This document shows positions 55,507-62,749 of a stretch of DNA of 64,000 nt, one piece after another. This stretch comes from Luteimonas endophytica. GTDB lineage: Bacteria; Pseudomonadota; Gammaproteobacteria; Xanthomonadales; Xanthomonadaceae. A program made the translations under genes and the position numbers. The notes beneath the pieces were generated by a model. That model had not been told where the DNA came from, ran no database searches, and was given only the letters and a program-made list of their open reading frames with translations. The stretch is from assembly GCF_029887875.1 (NCBI RefSeq), contig NZ_JARXRM010000046.1:1-64000 (forward strand), written 5' to 3'. Each line of letters begins with the position of its first letter. The first letter of the stretch is position 1.

Positions 55507-57327
55507 ATGGCCAATTCGATCGAAGTGAAGGTGCCGGACATCGGCGATTTTTCCGAGGTGCCGGTGATCGAGGTGCTGGTCTCGGTGGGCGACCGGGTCG
55601 AGGCCGATCAGGGCCTGATCACCCTGGAGTCGGACAAGGCGACGATGGAAGTCCCTTCGCCCGCCGCCGGCGTGGTGAAGTCGCTCAAGGTGGCGGTCGG
55701 AGACAGTGTGTCCGAGGGCGTCGTGGTCGCCGTGCTGGAGGCCGGGGAAGGGCAGGCGACGGAACCGCGCGAAAGCGAGGACTCAGGCAGTGAGGATCGC
55801 GCCGCTGCCGCGCCGCAGGACGGCCCGTCGAAGCCCCCGGTGGCGAAGTCCCACCGCGCCCCGGCCGAGCCGCCGGAGACCAAGCCCGCGCCGCGCAGCG
55901 GCCGGCAGGCGGACGTGGAATGCGCGCTGCTCGTGCTCGGTGCCGGCCCCGGCGGGTACACCGCGGCGTTCCGCGCGGCCGATCTCGGACTCGATACGGT
56001 GCTGGTGGAGCGCTACGAGGCGCTGGGCGGGGTCTGCCTCAACGTCGGCTGCATCCCGTCGAAGGCGCTGCTGCATGCCGCGGCGGTGATCGACGAGGCC
56101 GCGCACGCCGCCGACTACGGGATCGCGTTCGGCAAGCCGAAGATCGACCTGGACGCGTTGCGCGCGCACAAGCAGAAGGTGGTCGGCCAGTTCAACAAGG
56201 GTCTGGCGGGCATGGCCAAACAGCGCAAGGTGCGGGTGCTGGCCGGCAGCGGCGCCTTCGTCTCGCCCAACGAGATCGAAGTCGACGACGGCAAGGGCGG
56301 CAAGCAGCTGGTGAGCTTCGAGCAGTGCATCATCGCCGCCGGCAGCCAGGCGCTGAAGCTGCCCGGCTTCCCCTGGGACGACCCGCGGGTGATGGACTCC
56401 ACGGACGCGCTGGAGCTTGGCGCCACGCCCAAGAAACTGCTGGTGGTGGGCGGCGGCATCATCGGTCTGGAGATGGCCACCGTGTACCGCGCGCTCGGCA
56501 GCGAGATCACCGTGGTGGAACTGGCCGACCAGCTGATGCCGGGCGCCGACCGGGACCTGGTCAAGCCGCTGGCCGACCGGCTGAAGAAGCAAGGCGTGGC
56601 GATCCACCTGGAGACCAAGGTGGTCGAGGCCAAGGCGCAGAAGAACGGCATCGCCTGCAGCTTCGAGGGCGACAGCATCCCGGACACCAAGCTGTTCGAC
56701 CGGGTGCTGGTGGCGGTCGGGCGCGTGCCCAACGGCGGGAAGATCGACGCCGACAAGGCGGGGGTGCGGGTGGGCGAGCGCGGCTTCATCGACGCCGACC
56801 GGCAGATGCGCACCAACGTGCCGCACATCTTCGCGATCGGCGACATCGTCGGCCAGCCGATGCTGGCGCACAAGGCGACCCACGAGGGCAAGCTGGCGGC
56901 GGAAGTCGCCGCCGGCGAAAAGAAGGACTGGGTGGCGCGGGTGATCCCGTCGGTGGCGTACACCGACCCGGAGATCGCCTGGGTCGGCGTCACCGAGACC
57001 GAGGCGAAGGCCAAGGGGATCAAGGTCGGCGTCGGCAAGTTCCCGTGGGCGGCCTCGGCGCGCGCGGTCGGCATCGGCCGCGGCGAGGGCTTCACCAAGC
57101 TGCTGTTCGACGAGACCACTCACCGCGTCGTCGGCGGCGCCATCGTCGGCCCGCACGCGGGCGAGCTGATCGCCGAGGTCGCCCTGGCCATCGAGATGGG
57201 CGCCGAGGCGGCCGACATCGGCCACACCATCCATCCGCATCCGACGCTGAGCGAGTCGGTGGCGATGGCGGCCGAGGTCTACGAGGGCACCATCACCGAT
57301 CTCTACCTTCCGAAGCGGAAGCCGTGA
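55507..57327 (+). CDS. lpdA: Dihydrolipoyl dehydrogenase with N-terminal lipoyl domain
   Basis: A 606-residue E3 component. Residues 1-80 form a lipoyl domain (K44, ESDKATMEVP) almost the same as that of AceF. The linker is Pro/Ser-rich. The FAD-binding start is LLVLGAGPGGYTAAFRAADL, the redox disulfide is in VCLNVGCIPSKALLH, the NAD site is LLVVGGGIIGLEMATVYRAL, and the dimer end holds HPHPTLSE. It reoxidises dihydrolipoamide. E3 with its own lipoyl arm is known in Neisseria and Xanthomonas. Stop overlaps the next gene (GTGA). Confidence 0.97.
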   Translation: MANSIEVKVPDIGDFSEVPVIEVLVSVGDRVEADQGLITLESDKATMEVPSPAAGVVKSLKVAVGDSVSEGVVVAVLEAGEGQATEPRESEDSGSEDRAAAAPQDGPSKPPVAKSHRAPAEPPETKPAPRSGRQADVECALLVLGAGPGGYTAAFRAADLGLDTVLVERYEALGGVCLNVGCIPSKALLHAAAVIDEAAHAADYGIAFGKPKIDLDALRAHKQKVVGQFNKGLAGMAKQRKVRVLAGSGAFVSPNEIEVDDGKGGKQLVSFEQCIIAAGSQALKLPGFPWDDPRVMDSTDALELGATPKKLLVVGGGIIGLEMATVYRALGSEITVVELADQLMPGADRDLVKPLADRLKKQGVAIHLETKVVEAKAQKNGIACSFEGDSIPDTKLFDRVLVAVGRVPNGGKIDADKAGVRVGERGFIDADRQMRTNVPHIFAIGDIVGQPMLAHKATHEGKLAAEVAAGEKKDWVARVIPSVAYTDPEIAWVGVTETEAKAKGIKVGVGKFPWAASARAVGIGRGEGFTKLLFDETTHRVVGGAIVGPHAGELIAEVALAIEMGAEAADIGHTIHPHPTLSESVAMAAEVYEGTITDLYLPKRKP

Positions 57328-58133
57328 AGACGACGGCATCCTGTGCCGCGATCCTCGCGGCACTGCTGGCGGGCACGGCCGCGGCCCACGTCGCGCAGCC
57401 CAACACGATCAGCATGGCCAGCGTCGATCGTTGCCCAGGTGGTCCGGAATGGCTGGAGTCGCTGCGTGCCGAGCGCCGTGCCGCAGGACCGCGCCCGGTA
57501 GCGACGAACCCTGCGCTGCGCGACCGGCTGATTGCCCTGGACAGGGACCGATCCGCCGCGGACTACTCGCAAGCGGCTGCAGAGGCGGCTGCTGCGGCCG
57601 ACGCTGCCGCAGCGGCGGCCCTGGCAGCGATACGTGCAGGCGATTCGGGTTCCGCGCCTTCCGTGCCGGAAAGCACGTCGCCGCCAGCTACGCCCCGGGA
57701 AGCCTCGCGCCTTTCCCGCTTGCAGGCGCTTGTCGACCTGCAGAAGCCGCCGAGGGTTGCCGAGATCGGCCCGAGCGGAATGAACGCGGTCTTTTCGGTC
57801 CTCGAAAGAATCGCTTCCCAGCCGCAGGCCCGGCTGCGCCTGGGCGAAGCGCTCCTGCGGAGCGGCGACCCGGGCCTGGACCGGGCGTCGAGGCGCCGCG
57901 CGGCCGAACTGGTCGATCGTGCATTGCACGACCTCGGCGAGCCGCAGCGGTATGGCACGCTCTTCGACATCCAGGCACAGGGCCGGGCGATCCTTCGACA
58001 GCCTGTCGAGGCCGAGGCGGGGCTGGAGGCGCGGCGAGCGGGACTGGGCCTCGTCCCGTTGGCGCTCGAAACCTGCGTCCGCAGCGACAGCGAGAGCGAT
58101 ATGCCCTGGTCGCTTTTCTTCGGGTTCCTTTGA
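57324..58133 (+). CDS. Exported protein, DUF6624-like
   Basis: A 269-residue protein with a signal peptide (AAILAALLAGTAAAH) and an Ala-rich helix at about 80-105. The C-terminal half resembles DUF6624: it has ALHDLGEPQRYGTLFDIQAQ and ends with EARRAGLGLVPLALETCV. Role unknown. GTG 57324 overlaps the lpdA stop. The TGA stop lies at the centre of a perfect 20-bp palindrome. Confidence 0.72.
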   Translation: MKTTASCAAILAALLAGTAAAHVAQPNTISMASVDRCPGGPEWLESLRAERRAAGPRPVATNPALRDRLIALDRDRSAADYSQAAAEAAAAADAAAAAALAAIRAGDSGSAPSVPESTSPPATPREASRLSRLQALVDLQKPPRVAEIGPSGMNAVFSVLERIASQPQARLRLGEALLRSGDPGLDRASRRRAAELVDRALHDLGEPQRYGTLFDIQAQGRAILRQPVEAEAGLEARRAGLGLVPLALETCVRSDSESDMPWSLFFGFL

Positions 58134-58354: not shown

Positions 58355-60265
58355 ATGAGGATTGGATTCGGGATGAAGGCGCTATGTGGCGCCGTCCTGG
58401 CAGCGGCCAGCGCCACGGCCGTGTCGGAAGATGCGCACCGCGTGGCTGGCGGGAGCAAAACCGCACCACAGTCGACCGCGGACGCCGGCGCACTGGAACA
58501 GCGACTGCGTCAGGAAGAAACTCGTCTGCGCGCCGAGCGCGCCGCCTATCCGGGACATTTCCGCCGCGCCTATGCCGCCTATCCGCGGATTCCGGCCGGG
58601 ACCCTCGAGGCGATCGCCTACGTGCAGAGCCGCTGGCAACCGCTCGCGCCGGAGGCGGAGAATCACGGCCATCACCACATGCCCGCCGCGTACGGGGTCA
58701 TGGGGCTCTACGCCGGCGACGGCTTCGCCGACCAGGTCGGCGAGGCGGCGGCGCTGCTGGGCGTGCCGGGCGAGCGGATCAAGGCCGATCCGGCCACCAA
58801 CATCCTCGCGGCCGCGGCGCTGCTGGACCGGCTGATGCGCGGCAAGCCGGTGTCCTCGCTGGAGGACGCGGCGCCGCTGCTGGCCCGCTATGCCGGTTTC
58901 GGCCAGGATCCGGGTGACAGCGCGGTCGGCGACTACGCCCGCGCCAGCTTCGCCTTCGACGTGCTGCTGGCGCTGGACCGCGGGGTGAACGAGAAGGGCA
59001 TGGTGGTGCCGCAACGGGCGGTGGCCTGGGAACAGGCGTTCGATGCCGACACCCTGGTCCGGCTGAACGCGCCGTTCGTGCGCCTGGACGTCGAAGGCGA
59101 CCGCATCGAGACCGACAGCCACGCGATCGACCCGGTCAGCGAGCGGCTGGTGCGCCGCGACGGCGCCGCGGGCAAGGGCCCCGACATGCAGCCGCTGAGC
59201 ACCGACTACGGCCCGGCGATCTGGAACCCGGCGCACTCGTCCAACTACACCGCATCGCGCAGCGCGGCGGTGAGCGCGGTCACCATCCACACCGCCCAGG
59301 GCAGCTACGCCGGCACGATCTCGTGGTTCAAGAACGCCTCGGCCAACGTCAGCGCCCATTACGTGATTCGCAGCTCGGACGGCCAGGTCACCCAGATGGT
59401 GCGCCACGCCCATACCGGCTGGCACGTGCGCAACCACAACAGCTACACCCTGGGCATCGAGCACGAGGGCTACGTCAACAACAGTTCCTGGTATACCAGC
59501 GCGATGTACAACGCCTCGGCGGCGCTGGTGCGTCACTTCTGCGCCAGCTACAGCGCGATCAGCTGCACCGCGGCCTACAGCGGCGCGCCCAGCAGCGGCA
59601 TCAACGTGCTGCCGACCAGCATCAGGATCAAGGGCCACCAGCACTTCAGCGGCCAGACCCACACCGACCCGGGCATCAACTGGAACTGGAGCCACTACTA
59701 CGGCCTGCTGAACCCCGGCAGCGGCGGCGGCACCGCCTATCTGGACCGCTTCGAGTCCAGCGTCGGTCACTTCAACACCAGCCCGGCGTATTCGGGCAGC
59801 ACCACCGGCATCTCCACCGCCTCCACCGCCACCCGCGACTGCACCACCCGGCGCTACGGCAACTGTTCGCTGCGGGTCCTGCTCAGGGACAATCCCAACA
59901 CTTCCGCCAGCTGGGCGGTGCGGCTGCTCTCGGGCGCCGGAAACCCGGGGAGCAACACCGCGCTGTCGCGCAGCAACGGCAGGGTCGGGTTCTGGGCCTG
60001 GTCCGGCGGCAGCGGCATGAGCGTGGGCGTAGGCATCGACGACAGCGACGGCACCGAGCGTTCGGCCAATCGCGCGCTTCCGGCCAACCAGTGGACCTAC
60101 GTCGAATGGAGCCTCACCGATGCAGGCCAGTGGAACGGCTGGGTCGGCAGCGCCAACGGCGCGATCACCGCTTCCAGCGTGAAGCTGGACGCGATCTGGC
60201 TGTACCGCGCGCAGACCAGCTACGACGTCAACGTCTACATCGACGACGTGCAGATCCGCAACTGA
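58355..60265 (+). CDS. Exported N-acetylmuramoyl-L-alanine amidase with SLT-like domain
   Basis: A 636-residue three-part protein. A hydrophobic segment at residues 5-22 is a signal. Residues 75-215 have the SLT transglycosylase plan (TLEAIAYVQSRWQPL, AYGVMGLYAG), but Q91 stands where the catalytic Glu is usual. Residues 305-445 are an Amidase_2 domain with H312 (TIHTAQG), H428 (KGHQHF) and D438 (HTDPG), the expected zinc site. The last 175 residues are a beta-rich domain shared with the next gene. The amidase cuts the stem peptide from MurNAc. Start ATG 58355; ATG 58373 is possible. Confidence 0.88.
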   Translation: MRIGFGMKALCGAVLAAASATAVSEDAHRVAGGSKTAPQSTADAGALEQRLRQEETRLRAERAAYPGHFRRAYAAYPRIPAGTLEAIAYVQSRWQPLAPEAENHGHHHMPAAYGVMGLYAGDGFADQVGEAAALLGVPGERIKADPATNILAAAALLDRLMRGKPVSSLEDAAPLLARYAGFGQDPGDSAVGDYARASFAFDVLLALDRGVNEKGMVVPQRAVAWEQAFDADTLVRLNAPFVRLDVEGDRIETDSHAIDPVSERLVRRDGAAGKGPDMQPLSTDYGPAIWNPAHSSNYTASRSAAVSAVTIHTAQGSYAGTISWFKNASANVSAHYVIRSSDGQVTQMVRHAHTGWHVRNHNSYTLGIEHEGYVNNSSWYTSAMYNASAALVRHFCASYSAISCTAAYSGAPSSGINVLPTSIRIKGHQHFSGQTHTDPGINWNWSHYYGLLNPGSGGGTAYLDRFESSVGHFNTSPAYSGSTTGISTASTATRDCTTRRYGNCSLRVLLRDNPNTSASWAVRLLSGAGNPGSNTALSRSNGRVGFWAWSGGSGMSVGVGIDDSDGTERSANRALPANQWTYVEWSLTDAGQWNGWVGSANGAITASSVKLDAIWLYRAQTSYDVNVYIDDVQIRN

Positions 60266-60334
60266 CCGCGGCGGGCAGGCGGGGGGCGACCAGCCCCCCG
60301 CGTATTCCGGGCCGCCGGCCAGCGCAGGCGGCCC

Positions 60335-60446
60335 GCTCGTAGGAGCGCGCCATCCACGCGAAGTCCACGAATCCGCCAGCGCCTGGAATCATCACCACCC
60401 CCGCCGGCCCCATCCGCGGTCTTCGCGGCCAGGGGCCGCTCCTCCG
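60335..60446. repeat. REP-like inverted repeat C
   Basis: The left arm starts CTCGTAGGAGCGCGCC at 60335. The right arm at 60421-60446 reads, on the minus strand, CGGAGGAGCGGCCCCTGGCC, the same type. It lies in the 231-bp gap between the two peptidoglycan enzymes and may limit read-through. No T-run follows. Confidence 0.7.
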
Positions 60447-60496
60447 CAGCCGTTTCGCTTGCCGTCGAATTGACGACCCCGCACGAGGATCACGTC

Positions 60497-62749
60497 ATGC
60501 CCATCGCTTCGGATCGCGGCCACCACCGCCGCGGCGCGTCGGCGCCGCGCGCGGTCGTGCTGCTCGCATGCGCCGCGCTGCTGGTGCTGGCCGCGGCGTA
60601 CGCCCAGCGGGCGAGCCGGGGCGCCGCCGTGGAAACCATGGTCGGGGAATCAGCGCAGGGAGCCCAGGCGGGCGCATCGGCCCCCCGCCGGCCGGCGCGA
60701 GTCGGCGCCCCCGGCCTCGCAGCCGGAAAGGTCGCGCCGAGGATCCGGGTGCGCGACAGCGCCAGCGGACGCGCGCTGGCGGCGCGCCTGGTGCTGGAGC
60801 ACGCGGCCGGGGCGGCACCGCCGCTGGACGCGCACATCCCACGCAGCGGCGCGCGGCTGCCGGACACCGCGCCCGGGGAATACCTGGTCACCGCGGCCGC
60901 CCCGGGCCAGGCGCCACTCGCTGCGCGGATCGTCTTCGATACCGCGCCGCTCCCCATCACGCTGTGGTTGCCGCCCGCGGCCACCTCCACCGCGCTGCAC
61001 CGGCAGGCGCTGGCCGCGCTCGACTGCGGCCATTGCAGCCTCATCGGCGGCCACGTCTACGACCGCGACAGCGGGGTCGCCGTACCGGGTGCCGTGGTCG
61101 CGGCGGACGGCGGACAGCGTGCGGTCACCGACGCCGAGGGGGCTTTCGAATTGCTGCTGCGGCTGCCGCCGGCGCCGGATGGGGCCGAGACGCCACCGGC
61201 ATCCGCCACCCTGACGATTTCGGCCGGCGGGTACCGCCGCCAGCAGCTCGAAAGGGTGGCGCTGTCGCCCGACGCCGCGCACCACATCATCGACCTGGAA
61301 CGCGGCTCGGGCGTCGATCGCCAGGACCATGGCCATGTCCTGGCGAACACGCGCTCCGGGGCGGGCGTGGAGCCGGGAACCGGCGCCGACGTGCGCGCGC
61401 CGCACGAGCCACCGGGCGCCGACCGCGGCAAGGCCCACGACCCGGCCGGTCCCGACCACGCGCAGCGCGCGGCCAGGCTCGCGCGCGCCGCGGCGGTTCC
61501 GGTGCCGGCCAGCATCCGCGTGGGTACCGGCTGTTCGGGGCGCAGCTGCACCGGTGTCTCGGTGTACGAGTTCGAGGACTACGTGGGCCGCGGCCTGGAC
61601 GACGAGTGGATCGCCTCGTGGGATCCGGACTCGCTGGCGGCGGGCGCGGTCGCCTACCGCAGCTACGCGGCGTGGTACGTCGCCAATCCGGTCGGCGCCG
61701 CCTACGACATCTGCAGCAGCACCTCCTGCCAGGCATTCGGATCCGCCGCCTGGTCGGCGACGGTGGCCGCGGCGGCGGCCACCCGCGGCGTGCTGCTGAC
61801 CCGCGACGGAAGCAGCGCGGCGTTCGCCGAATACTCGGCCGAGAACAACGCCTGGGACGATCCTTCCGACGGTCGATCCTGCAGCAATCCGGACCTCTCC
61901 TGCGGCAACGGCCGCAACGGCTCGCCCGCCAACGGCTGGCCGTGCCTGGCCGACGAGGTCGGTCGCGGCCGCGGCTGTTTCGGCCACGGCCGCGGCATGA
62001 GCCAGTGGGGCACCCAGCGCTGGGCCGCCGATCACGGCCGCGGCTGGCGCTGGATCGCGGACCACTACTACAACGGCAACGGCCGCCCGGGCGGCATGCG
62101 CAACGCCTTTCTCGCCAATCTCGATCCGATCGCCGCCGAGATACTGGAAGATTTCGAGGCCGGCGCCGGCCGCTTCGATCGGCAGCCGACCGAGTCCGGC
62201 AGCACCGTCGGCGTGTCCGGCGCCTCGCGTGCGCAGCGCGACTGCGGCGTGCGCCGCGACGGCGACTGCTCGCTGCGGGTGCTGTTGCGCGACGACCCGG
62301 CGGTGACGGCGGACTGGTCGGTCCGGCTGCTGTCCGGCGGCGGTTCGCCCGCGGCCAACCGGCCGCTGCCGGGCGATGCCGGGATCGGCCTGTGGGTGTA
62401 CTCCGGCGGCACCGGCATGCGCATCGGCATCGGCATCGACGATGCCGACGGCACCGAGCGATCAACGAGCCGCGCCATCGCCTCGAACCAGTGGACCTGG
62501 CTGGAATGGAACCTGGCCGATCCTGCACAGTGGAACGCCTGGGTCGGGGGCAGCGACGGCGCCATCGACGGCGCGCGCGTGACCCTGGACGCGATCTGGC
62601 TGTACCGCGCCCAGACCGCGTACGACGTCAACGTCTACCTCGACGACGTGCAGATCCGCGAGGGACCCCGGCCGCCTTTCGCGGGCGGCACGCTGCCGCC
62701 CGCGTTCACCACGCCAGCGGATGCCCTCCGGGTCAGAACCGCACGCTGA
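60497..62749 (+). CDS. Exported SpoIID/LytB-type protein with shared C-terminal domain
   Basis: A 750-residue protein. One signal or anchor helix at 19-36 (AVVLLACAALLVLAAAYA), a carboxypeptidase-regulatory-like domain at 180-268 (IGGHVYDRDSGVAVPGAVVA), then the SpoIID domain about 335-545. This has FEDYVGRGLDDEWIASWDPD with E370 in the place of the catalytic Glu of SpoIID, AAGAVAYRSYAAWYV, and GHGRGMSQWGTQRW. Several Cys pairs suggest disulfides. The end (about 548-700) is the same beta-domain as in the amidase. SpoIID is a lytic transglycosylase on glycan without stem peptides. ATG 60497 has GAGG 9 bases before. Confidence 0.87.
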   Translation: MPIASDRGHHRRGASAPRAVVLLACAALLVLAAAYAQRASRGAAVETMVGESAQGAQAGASAPRRPARVGAPGLAAGKVAPRIRVRDSASGRALAARLVLEHAAGAAPPLDAHIPRSGARLPDTAPGEYLVTAAAPGQAPLAARIVFDTAPLPITLWLPPAATSTALHRQALAALDCGHCSLIGGHVYDRDSGVAVPGAVVAADGGQRAVTDAEGAFELLLRLPPAPDGAETPPASATLTISAGGYRRQQLERVALSPDAAHHIIDLERGSGVDRQDHGHVLANTRSGAGVEPGTGADVRAPHEPPGADRGKAHDPAGPDHAQRAARLARAAAVPVPASIRVGTGCSGRSCTGVSVYEFEDYVGRGLDDEWIASWDPDSLAAGAVAYRSYAAWYVANPVGAAYDICSSTSCQAFGSAAWSATVAAAAATRGVLLTRDGSSAAFAEYSAENNAWDDPSDGRSCSNPDLSCGNGRNGSPANGWPCLADEVGRGRGCFGHGRGMSQWGTQRWAADHGRGWRWIADHYYNGNGRPGGMRNAFLANLDPIAAEILEDFEAGAGRFDRQPTESGSTVGVSGASRAQRDCGVRRDGDCSLRVLLRDDPAVTADWSVRLLSGGGSPAANRPLPGDAGIGLWVYSGGTGMRIGIGIDDADGTERSTSRAIASNQWTWLEWNLADPAQWNAWVGGSDGAIDGARVTLDAIWLYRAQTAYDVNVYLDDVQIREGPRPPFAGGTLPPAFTTPADALRVRTAR

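What the first reader, a model, noticed from the sequence alone, without database searches (positions are those of the whole stretch)
58355..62749. Amidase and SpoIID-type pair with a common C-terminal domain in a Gram-negative
Seen: the amidase at 58355 and the SpoIID protein at 60497 end with about 150 residues that are alike over the whole length (for example CSLRVLLRD, VRLLSG, LDAIWLYRAQT, YDVNVY-DDVQIR), and the DNA is also alike there. Known: in Bacillus, SpoIIP removes stem peptides and SpoIID then cuts the bare glycan. Inferred: the two work in sequence here, held at the same site by the shared domain. This could be a wall-remodelling or attack system.
Basis: partly seen in the sequence, partly recalled or inferred. 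Interest (0 to 1): 0.8.

Follow-up and report, generated by a model that had tools for sequence, protein, structure and literature searches.

The report
Wall-cutting enzyme pair sharing matching tails
Two neighbouring genes in a Luteimonas-like bacterium encode exported proteins that should strip and then cut bacterial cell wall, and both end in the same sugar-binding-type domain; in related Lysobacter a duplicated copy of the pair has exchanged that tail, in both genes, for the same unrelated domain, which suggests that the two proteins need to be aimed at the same target.

Summary
The amidase (58355-60265) and the SpoIID-family protein (60497-62749) end in one shared domain of about 173 residues (61% identical; DNA 72% identical over 512 bp). 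No Pfam family matches it convincingly; its predicted fold is a carbohydrate-binding beta-sandwich. The amidase is Amidase_2 (AmpD-like), not SpoIIP, and has a lytic-transglycosylase-like module without the catalytic Glu.

The domain seems to belong first to the amidase: 49 of 49 named-genome loci carry it there; 8 of the 47 with downstream flank also have SpoIID-domain next to it. The 21 SpoIID relatives fetched from elsewhere in the order lack it and show no amidase beside them. In Lysobacter a second pair, related to the first, has an SH3 domain instead in BOTH genes. Of 26 adjacent pairs read, 26 have matching tails (21 and 5; trees 94, 95).

Best reading: exported, co-targeted wall-lytic pair; amidase bares glycan, SpoIID protein cuts it. 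Co-targeting is supported by evolution; activity, order of action and attack versus self are inferred. Bacillus LytB/LytC already shows the principle, so this is a new Gram-negative variant.

The parts
58355..60265 (+). exported amidase: signal peptide by eye, SLT-like module, Amidase_2, shared C-terminal domain (636 aa)
   Evidence: ORF; Pfam Amidase_2 5.8e-23
58523..58990 (+). SLT-like (GH23-fold) module; Gln91 (58625-58627) stands where GH23 has its catalytic Glu
   Evidence: Pfam SLT E 0.015, below cut-off; model matches lytic transglycosylases, VIA Z to 12.2, Foldseek only E 0.11; aligned with two own-genome GH23 enzymes; no Glu in 68 rows
59240..59704 (+). Amidase_2 catalytic domain; His312, Glu369, His428, Asp438
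   Evidence: the four residues identical in 67 of 67 rows; positions
59741..60262 (+). shared C-terminal domain, amidase copy (residues 463-636)
   Evidence: model m980ef3dccbeb
60497..62749 (+). exported or membrane-anchored SpoIID-family protein (750 aa from ATG 60497)
   Evidence: export judged by eye
61034..61306 (+). carboxypeptidase-regulatory-like beta domain
   Evidence: Pfam CarboxypepD_reg 3.2e-09
61511..62128 (+). SpoIID domain; Glu370 (61604-61606) aligns with the catalytic Glu of solved SpoIID; GHGRGMSQWG from 61982
   Evidence: Pfam SpoIID 1.6e-10, over cut-off; alignment with 4rwr and 5i1t, weak at this stretch; Glu invariant in 12 of 12 full-length rows
62144..62662 (+). shared C-terminal domain, SpoIID copy (residues 550-722)

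Best explanation
The two genes encode an exported pair of wall-degrading proteins aimed at the same place by a shared C-terminal carbohydrate-binding-type domain. The zinc amidase, which also carries a transglycosylase-like module without its catalytic Glu that may serve to hold glycan, removes stem peptides; the SpoIID-family protein then cuts the bared glycan, or boosts the amidase as Bacillus LytB does. By distribution the domain belonged first to the amidase; a SpoIID gene of the order with another C-terminus came to lie beside it and took on the amidase's domain. In Lysobacter the pair was duplicated and both members came to carry one SH3 domain instead. Shown here: shared domain, predicted folds, conserved active-site residues, matched tails. 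Inferred by parsimony: the history. Inferred from relatives: catalysis, order of action, binding to peptidoglycan. Open: secretion toward other cells.
For: Shared domain; carbohydrate-binding fold: Foldseek best 1.8e-06 with many CBM entries, VIA Z 11.8 to mannanase entry 1wky (rmsd 2.9, 139 residues) and 9.8-10.6 to CBM4, 11, 27 and 28; weak sequence match to CBM61 (E 0.017). Active-site residues kept. 26 of 26 adjacent SpoIID/SLT-amidase pairs read have the same tail on both: 21 with the CBM-like domain (18, the window, L036 and L040) and 5 with SH3. SpoIID tree: all 6 SH3-tailed rows nest in a group with the Lysobacter CBM-tailed rows (97/95); amidase tree: the 5 SH3-tailed rows are sister to the Lysobacter CBM-tailed ones (100/97) among rows that carry the CBM-like domain. 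Pair 2 has the reverse gene order. SH3 tails are no more alike within a locus (0.82-0.87) than between loci (0.81-0.89), so continuing copying does not keep them matched. The pair sits in two different neighbourhoods. Print: SpoIID cuts glycan bared by an amidase (PMC6221140, PMC6635528; passages).
Against: No assay. The domain's ligand is unknown: fold relatives bind many plant and algal glycans and some are not sugar binders (flagellar sheath FlaA1 is the top VIA row). Of 47 named loci with downstream flank, 39 show no SpoIID gene beside the amidase, so the amidase works without it. The 26 pairs are few independent events, perhaps two. One SH3-tailed SpoIID gene has no amidase beside it (L213). 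G094 has the domain on an Amidase_2 protein and a distant SpoIID-family gene without it on another contig, so the two families also coexist unlinked. Copying between neighbours could give matched tails without selection. Bacillus LytB itself is listed as not hydrolysing wall (PMC10653849) or doing so minutely (PMC7176660), so the SpoIID protein may not be an active glycan cutter.
Confidence: 0.62

Rival explanations
1. LytB-type helper: the SpoIID-family protein is mainly a non-catalytic or weakly catalytic enhancer of the amidase, brought to the same wall site by the shared domain.
For: Bacillus LytB is a SpoIID-family (PF08486) protein listed as not hydrolysing peptidoglycan; it boosts LytC of the same operon and carries three wall-binding domains. 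In 21 of 21 cases read, a SpoIID protein with the CBM-like domain lies beside the amidase.
Against: The SpoIID Glu and GHGRGMSQWG motif are invariant in 12 of 12 full-length rows; such a Glu is needed for C. difficile SpoIID activity (PMC6221140).
Confidence: 0.22
2. Own-wall remodelling: the pair acts on the producer's own wall during growth, division or assembly of envelope structures.
For: Both carry export signals by eye; some SpoIID N-termini look like uncleaved membrane anchors; Waddlia SpoIID works at the division septum (PMC6635528).
Against: Patchy: SpoIID of this kind is in 22 of 385 Lysobacteraceae genomes, and in Luteimonas the gene is present in some and absent in other loci between the same neighbours; a core wall function would be steadier. 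It is common in the Lysobacter genus code (15 of 20 genomes), a group with lytically active species (PMC12219114).
Confidence: 0.3
3. The matched tails are a by-product of recombination between neighbours and carry no shared targeting.
For: In several lineages the SpoIID copy of the domain is most like the amidase copies of its own lineage; best trees do not put all SpoIID copies in one group.
Against: One group is not rejected (AU p 0.245, 0.106, 0.215); SH3 tails are not more alike within a locus than between loci; matching persists in both pairs across species.
Confidence: 0.2
4. The shared domain is a protein-protein (pairing) module rather than a sugar binder.
For: Some fold relatives are structural or adhesion proteins; the fold does not fix the function.
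Against: An SH3 domain, by general knowledge a common wall-binding module, takes its place in both partners of pair 2; 39 of 47 named loci show no SpoIID partner beside the amidase.
Confidence: 0.12

Closest known systems
Bacillus subtilis LytB (CwbA) and LytC (CwlB)
   Same: SpoIID-family protein and amidase of one operon; LytB has three wall-binding domains, CwlB has the CWB2 type; the two synergise, also on foreign walls (passages of PMC7176660, PMC10653849, PMC5817068). The title of Kuroda 1992, seen in a reference list, calls the modifier homologous to the autolysin and to SpoIID
   Different: wall-binding repeats, not a C-terminal CBM-like or SH3 domain; by recall LytC is Amidase_3 and the repeats are N-terminal; Gram-positive
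SpoIID/SpoIIP engulfment enzymes (B. subtilis, C. difficile)
   Same: amidase followed by a SpoIID transglycosylase acting on bared glycan (PMC6221140 passages)
   Different: SpoIIP is another amidase family; no shared domain known to me; sporulation
Chlamydial SpoIID (Waddlia)
   Same: SpoIID outside sporulation, acts on glycan bared by an amidase, also on Gram-negative wall (PMC6635528: abstract, sections 12 and 14, passages)
   Different: no shared domain or neighbouring amidase described in the parts read
Ami of Lysobacter capsici XL1
   Same: secreted bacteriolytic zinc amidase of the same bacterial family (PMC12219114: abstract, sections 5 and 10, passages)
   Different: mature Ami is 270 aa. 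Taking the short L. enzymogenes frame L152 (324 aa) as its likely relative (my inference from size; no Ami sequence was compared), it matches our amidase domain only weakly (5e-04) and shows no shared domain
Carbohydrate-binding modules (CBM4, 11, 27, 28, 30, 61)
   Same: predicted fold
   Different: no family-level sequence match

Membership tests
SpoIID/LytB family (PF08486) | score over Pfam cut-off | tested here: met
   41.9 bits against 23
SpoIID/LytB family (PF08486) | catalytic Glu (E88 B. subtilis, E101 C. difficile) | tested here: met
   Glu370 aligns with Glu77 of chain 5i1t; the 24-residue offset to 5txu in the same table makes this 101. That stretch of the alignment scores only about 2 bits, so the placing rests on the motif and the Pfam match. 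Residue numbers in print:
Stage II sporulation protein D (TIGR02870 equivalog) | score over NCBIfam cut-off | tested here: not met
   25.9 against 234.75 bits
SpoIID_LytB domain (TIGR02669) | score over NCBIfam cut-off | tested here: not met
   60.8 against 83.3 bits
SpoIID/LytB family (PF08486) | transglycosylase activity on bared glycan | not testable with these tools
   needs purified protein
Amidase_2 (PF01510) | score over cut-off and metal-site residues | tested here: met
   82.1 against 26 bits; His, His, Asp and Glu identical in 67 of 67; that these are AmpD's metal and catalytic residues is recalled
SpoIIP amidase | match to the SpoIIP family model | tested here: not met
   not among the 3 families at E up to 1 for the amidase
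GH23 lytic transglycosylase (SLT) | fold | tested here: met
   VIA Z 12.2, rmsd 3.4 over 132 residues to MltF, many GH23 rows; Foldseek weak, best E 0.11
GH23 lytic transglycosylase (SLT) | score over Pfam cut-off | tested here: not met
   15.3 against 21.3 bits
GH23 lytic transglycosylase (SLT) | catalytic Glu | tested here: not met
   Q 56, A 5, M 4, T 1, N 1, gap 1 of 68 rows, some rows being the same genome twice
Carbohydrate-binding module | beta-sandwich fold | tested here: met
   model pLDDT 75, first 21 residues under 50
Carbohydrate-binding module | membership of a named CBM family | tested here: inconclusive
   no convincing Pfam match; CBM61 chain E 0.017
Carbohydrate-binding module | binds a glycan | not testable with these tools
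   needs binding assay
LytB/LytC-type pair | adjacent SpoIID-family and amidase genes sharing a non-catalytic domain | tested here: met
   window and 25 further pairs
LytB/LytC-type pair | CWB2 wall-binding repeats | tested here: not met
   no such match in Pfam scans of both proteins at E up to 1

The most novel reading that the evidence does not exclude
SpoIID-family proteins and amidases form matched sets whose wall-binding module is interchangeable but must be the same on both partners: the CBM-like domain in one Lysobacteraceae pair, SH3 in its duplicate, wall-binding repeats in Bacillus LytB/LytC. The shared module is an address tag that couples stem removal to glycan cutting, used here by Gram-negative bacteria to digest the walls of other cells.
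Probability: 0.4. Interest if true: 0.75.

Novelty: new variant of a known kind. Interest (0 to 1): 0.58.

Why it matters
If true, it is an evolutionary experiment on why wall enzymes carry binding domains: two proteins that must act in order keep the same tail, even when the tail is exchanged. The two Lysobacter pairs make the idea directly testable by exchanging tails in vitro. It also adds a carbohydrate-binding-type domain without a Pfam family, a naturally Glu-less transglycosylase module and a candidate lytic enzyme pair.

Tried and rejected
Recent DNA copying inside the window pair: rejected; codon identity at identical residues (0.74) lies at the upper end of, not above, the values against other genomes. 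A single origin of the SpoIID copies of the domain: neither shown nor rejected (AU p 0.245, 0.106, 0.215). SpoIIP membership: rejected. The domain on phages or plasmids: none found in viral contigs or plasmids; the phages collection was not searched. In the phylum sample 3 of 398 genomes carry it, all of the window's order. PDB sequence search with the SLT-like region: nothing at E up to 1 with the single sequence; with the profile one hit only, to alpha-2-macroglobulin at E 1.5, taken as chance. That this amidase is the Ami enzyme of L. capsici: judged unlikely, by size and inference; no Ami sequence was compared. Promoters or terminators near the genes: none found, against 0.2 and 1.1 expected, uninformative. 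That loss of the transglycosylase Glu goes with having a SpoIID partner: not so, partnerless amidases lack it too.

Paper searches: SpoIID with Lysobacter gave one unrelated paper; in the titles and abstract starts listed by the others (several lists capped at 10-20 of many more) I saw no description of this pair. One listed genome paper on Lysobacter Hz25 (PMC13163355) was not opened. The library holds open-licence papers only.
Full report
WHAT IS THERE. Two genes on the + strand, 231 bases apart. The first (58355-60265, 636 aa) has, by eye, a signal peptide, then an SLT-like module, an Amidase_2 domain (Pfam 5.8e-23) and a C-terminal domain. The second (ATG 60497 to 62749, 750 aa) has a hydrophobic N-terminus, a CarboxypepD_reg-like domain, a SpoIID domain (Pfam 1.6e-10, over cut-off) and the same C-terminal domain. 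The shared stretch is 105 of 172 residues identical, score 583 against at most 12 in 300 shuffles, and 370 of 512 bases identical. The window's genome holds these two copies only and one SpoIID gene. It lies near Luteimonas: the closest named relative found is Luteimonas salinisoli (90% identical domain; 93% identical amidase).

THE SHARED DOMAIN. Pfam gives no convincing match: the best of 23 members is E 0.0017, Fimbrial. A profile of the 23 finds one weak but sensibly placed PDB hit, CBM61 of a galactanase (E 0.017). The predicted structure (pLDDT 75; the first 21 residues poor) is a beta-sandwich. Foldseek lists 62 matches at E up to 0.001; most of the 50 shown are carbohydrate-binding modules or glycan-active enzymes (best 1wky 1.8e-06; CBM30, CBM4, CBM11, CBM16, CBM61). 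VIA gives Z 12.4 to flagellar sheath FlaA1, 11.8 to a xanthanase and to the mannanase entry 1wky, and 9-11 to many CBMs. So the fold is that of carbohydrate-binding modules; the ligand is unknown.

ACTIVE SITES. In the amidase His312, Glu369, His428 and Asp438 are identical in 67 of 67 rows (numbers). By recall these are the AmpD-type metal and catalytic residues; one search aligns the second His and the Asp with AmpD. The SLT-like module matches GH23 transglycosylases by fold (VIA Z to 12.2; Foldseek only E 0.11) and falls below the Pfam cut-off. The catalytic Glu position holds Gln in 56 of 68 rows, Ala 5, Met 4, Thr 1, Asn 1, gap 1 (some rows are one genome twice, and the gap is a broken frame of L021). 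Two GH23 enzymes of the same genome have Glu there in the alignment. Engineered Glu-to-Gln mutants of MltE and Slt are titled inactive in the PDB. The SpoIID domain keeps the Glu that aligns with C. difficile E101 in 12 of 12 full-length rows (that stretch of the alignment alone scores about 2 bits). This residue is printed as needed for activity (PMC6221140).

WHERE THE DOMAIN OCCURS. Of 49 loci found in named genomes, 49 carry it on the SLT-like/Amidase_2 protein; in one (L061) the scan splits the SLT-like part and the amidase over two frames. L042 and L066 end within 0.3 kb of the amidase; of the other 47, 8 have a SpoIID protein with the domain directly downstream. 34 of the 49 are named Luteimonas, Lysobacter or Stenotrophomonas; a few lie outside the order, such as Microbulbifer and Marinicella. 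It is in 20 of 149 genomes of the window's family; in 31 of 397 of the order, one of which (G087) is a weak hit with stops; and in 3 of 398 of the phylum, all of the order. Three more proteins carry it on an Amidase_2 without the SLT-like module: L022, L023 and L107.

SPOIID WITHOUT THE DOMAIN. Relatives of the SpoIID domain occur in 44 of 397 genomes of the order. Four of these are in the window's family and carry the domain. Of the other 40, six genomes also have the domain, but on another contig or about 35 kb or more away, and 34 have none (taking the two draws as the same sample, which the tool does not state). I fetched 21 of the 40: none shows the domain, the amidase or the SLT-like module within the roughly 1-1.5 kb of flank held; in L128 and L131 the C-terminus is cut. 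The C-terminus was read whole in 18 of them and in one of the window's family (L080); all 19 end in a different stretch that closes on a motif like F-x-D/N-G/S/A-F, with variants such as HADGFD and FAHGFE. In the family sample, 8 of 149 genomes have a PF08486 match. Four are the domain-bearing kind. G041 has the other tail. G114's gene is cut by a contig end. G094 and G120 hold distant SpoIID-family genes without the domain, and G094 also has the domain on an Amidase_2 on another contig.

LOCUS HISTORY. In Luteimonas the order is lpd, amidase, (SpoIID), outer-membrane protein. Four of the loci compared (L030, L035, L037, L065) have amidase and outer-membrane gene side by side; four (L028, L036, L040, L053) have SpoIID between them, as the window has; L029 has SpoIID but no such outer-membrane gene after it. 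In L. huabeiensis (L031) an ankyrin-repeat gene lies there. In the three Lysobacter loci compared (L050, L052, L056) none of these neighbours is found, yet the pair stays together.

A SECOND PAIR WITH ANOTHER MATCHED TAIL. A search for all Amidase_2 genes in three Lysobacter genomes showed, in two of them, a second SpoIID/SLT-amidase pair. Both members end in an SH3 domain, 86% identical to each other in L. enzymogenes, and the gene order is reversed. Pfam SH3_3 (cut-off 27 bits) gives 27.4 and 28.9 for two of the three proteins scanned and 23.8, under the cut-off, for the third. I then surveyed the family: 22 of 385 genomes have 28 SpoIID hits, and I fetched 26 regions, leaving out the window itself and one hit with stops. 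One search reads them. 18 of 18 of the first class have the CBM-like domain on both neighbours. 5 of 6 of the second class have SH3 on both; the sixth (L213) has SH3 on SpoIID and no amidase in the region. Of the remaining two, L219 has neither tail nor a neighbouring amidase, and in L218 the contig ends before the tail. Adding the window and two further named genomes (L036, L040) gives 26 of 26 adjacent pairs matched (21 CBM-like, 5 SH3). These are few independent events, perhaps two.

TREES. SpoIID catalytic domains: the 6 SH3-tailed rows form one group (100/100) inside a group with the Lysobacter CBM-tailed rows (97/95), and all 23 rows with neither tail lie outside (the tool warns that long branches meet between outer rows and the tailed group). 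Amidases without their tails: the 5 SH3-tailed rows are sister to the Lysobacter CBM-tailed rows (100/97) among rows that carry the CBM-like domain (several long branches). So by parsimony both genes of the duplicate exchanged the same old tail for the same new one. SH3 tails are 0.82-0.87 identical within a locus and 0.81-0.89 between loci, so continuing copying does not explain the match. For the CBM-like domain the SpoIID copies do not form one group in the best trees, yet one group is not rejected; one gain, several gains or later copying remain open.

MECHANISM. Most likely the amidase strips stem peptides and the SpoIID protein acts on the bared glycan, both held on the wall by their common tail. 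That SpoIID acts after an amidase is printed for C. difficile and for Waddlia. A helper role like Bacillus LytB is the main rival: LytB, a PF08486 protein, is listed as not hydrolysing peptidoglycan; it boosts LytC, needs its wall-binding domains for display on its own cell surface, and its authors infer the same for recipient cells. Attack on other cells is favoured over own-wall work by patchiness (22 of 385 family genomes) and by presence in 15 of 20 genomes of the Lysobacter genus code, but not shown. In 15 of 15 Lysobacter loci of the first class an SH3-bearing frame follows the pair. Of the two I scanned, one (L052, the same gene as in L196) is over the Pfam cut-off for peptidase M23; the other (L050) was scanned with NCBIfam only and matches M23-type models below their cut-offs.

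NOVELTY. The principle, a SpoIID-family protein and an amidase of one operon with wall-binding domains, is known from Bacillus LytB/LytC. New, as far as my searches show, are the Gram-negative setting, the Amidase_2 partner with a Glu-less transglycosylase module, the CBM-like domain, and the parallel change of tails. The searches are listed under Tried and rejected.

Noticed in passing
L168:13454-15124 and L169:13720-15522: A third SLT-like/Amidase_2 paralogue in Lysobacter keeps a Glu at the transglycosylase position (2 of 2) and has another C-terminus; it lies about 6 kb beyond the SpoIID gene of the first pair.
   Followed up: partly
L196:5553-6401 and 14 further Lysobacter loci: An SH3-bearing frame follows the first pair in 15 of 15 Lysobacter loci (M23 peptidase in L196); its SH3 is of the same kind as the tails of the second pair.
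   Followed up: partly
L117-L137, L080: SpoIID proteins of the order end in a motif like F-x-D/N-G/S/A-F in all 19 complete cases read; possibly a sorting signal.
   Followed up: no
L031:6755-9610: An ankyrin-repeat gene lies between amidase and outer-membrane gene in Luteimonas huabeiensis, where relatives have SpoIID or nothing.
   Followed up: no
G088:C1:272868-273035: A SpoIID remnant with stops inside in another genome of the family; not read further.
   Followed up: no
window 57324-58133: Frame with a weak, sub-cut-off DUF6624 match between lpd and the amidase, found also in L. salinisoli.
   Followed up: no
L072, L075: The amidase with the shared domain also occurs in Microbulbifer and Marinicella, perhaps by transfer.
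   Followed up: no
Lysobacter genus code g16: Genomes with the SpoIID gene are 5.1-6.3 Mb, those without 4.4-4.7 Mb (15 against 5 of 20).
   Followed up: no
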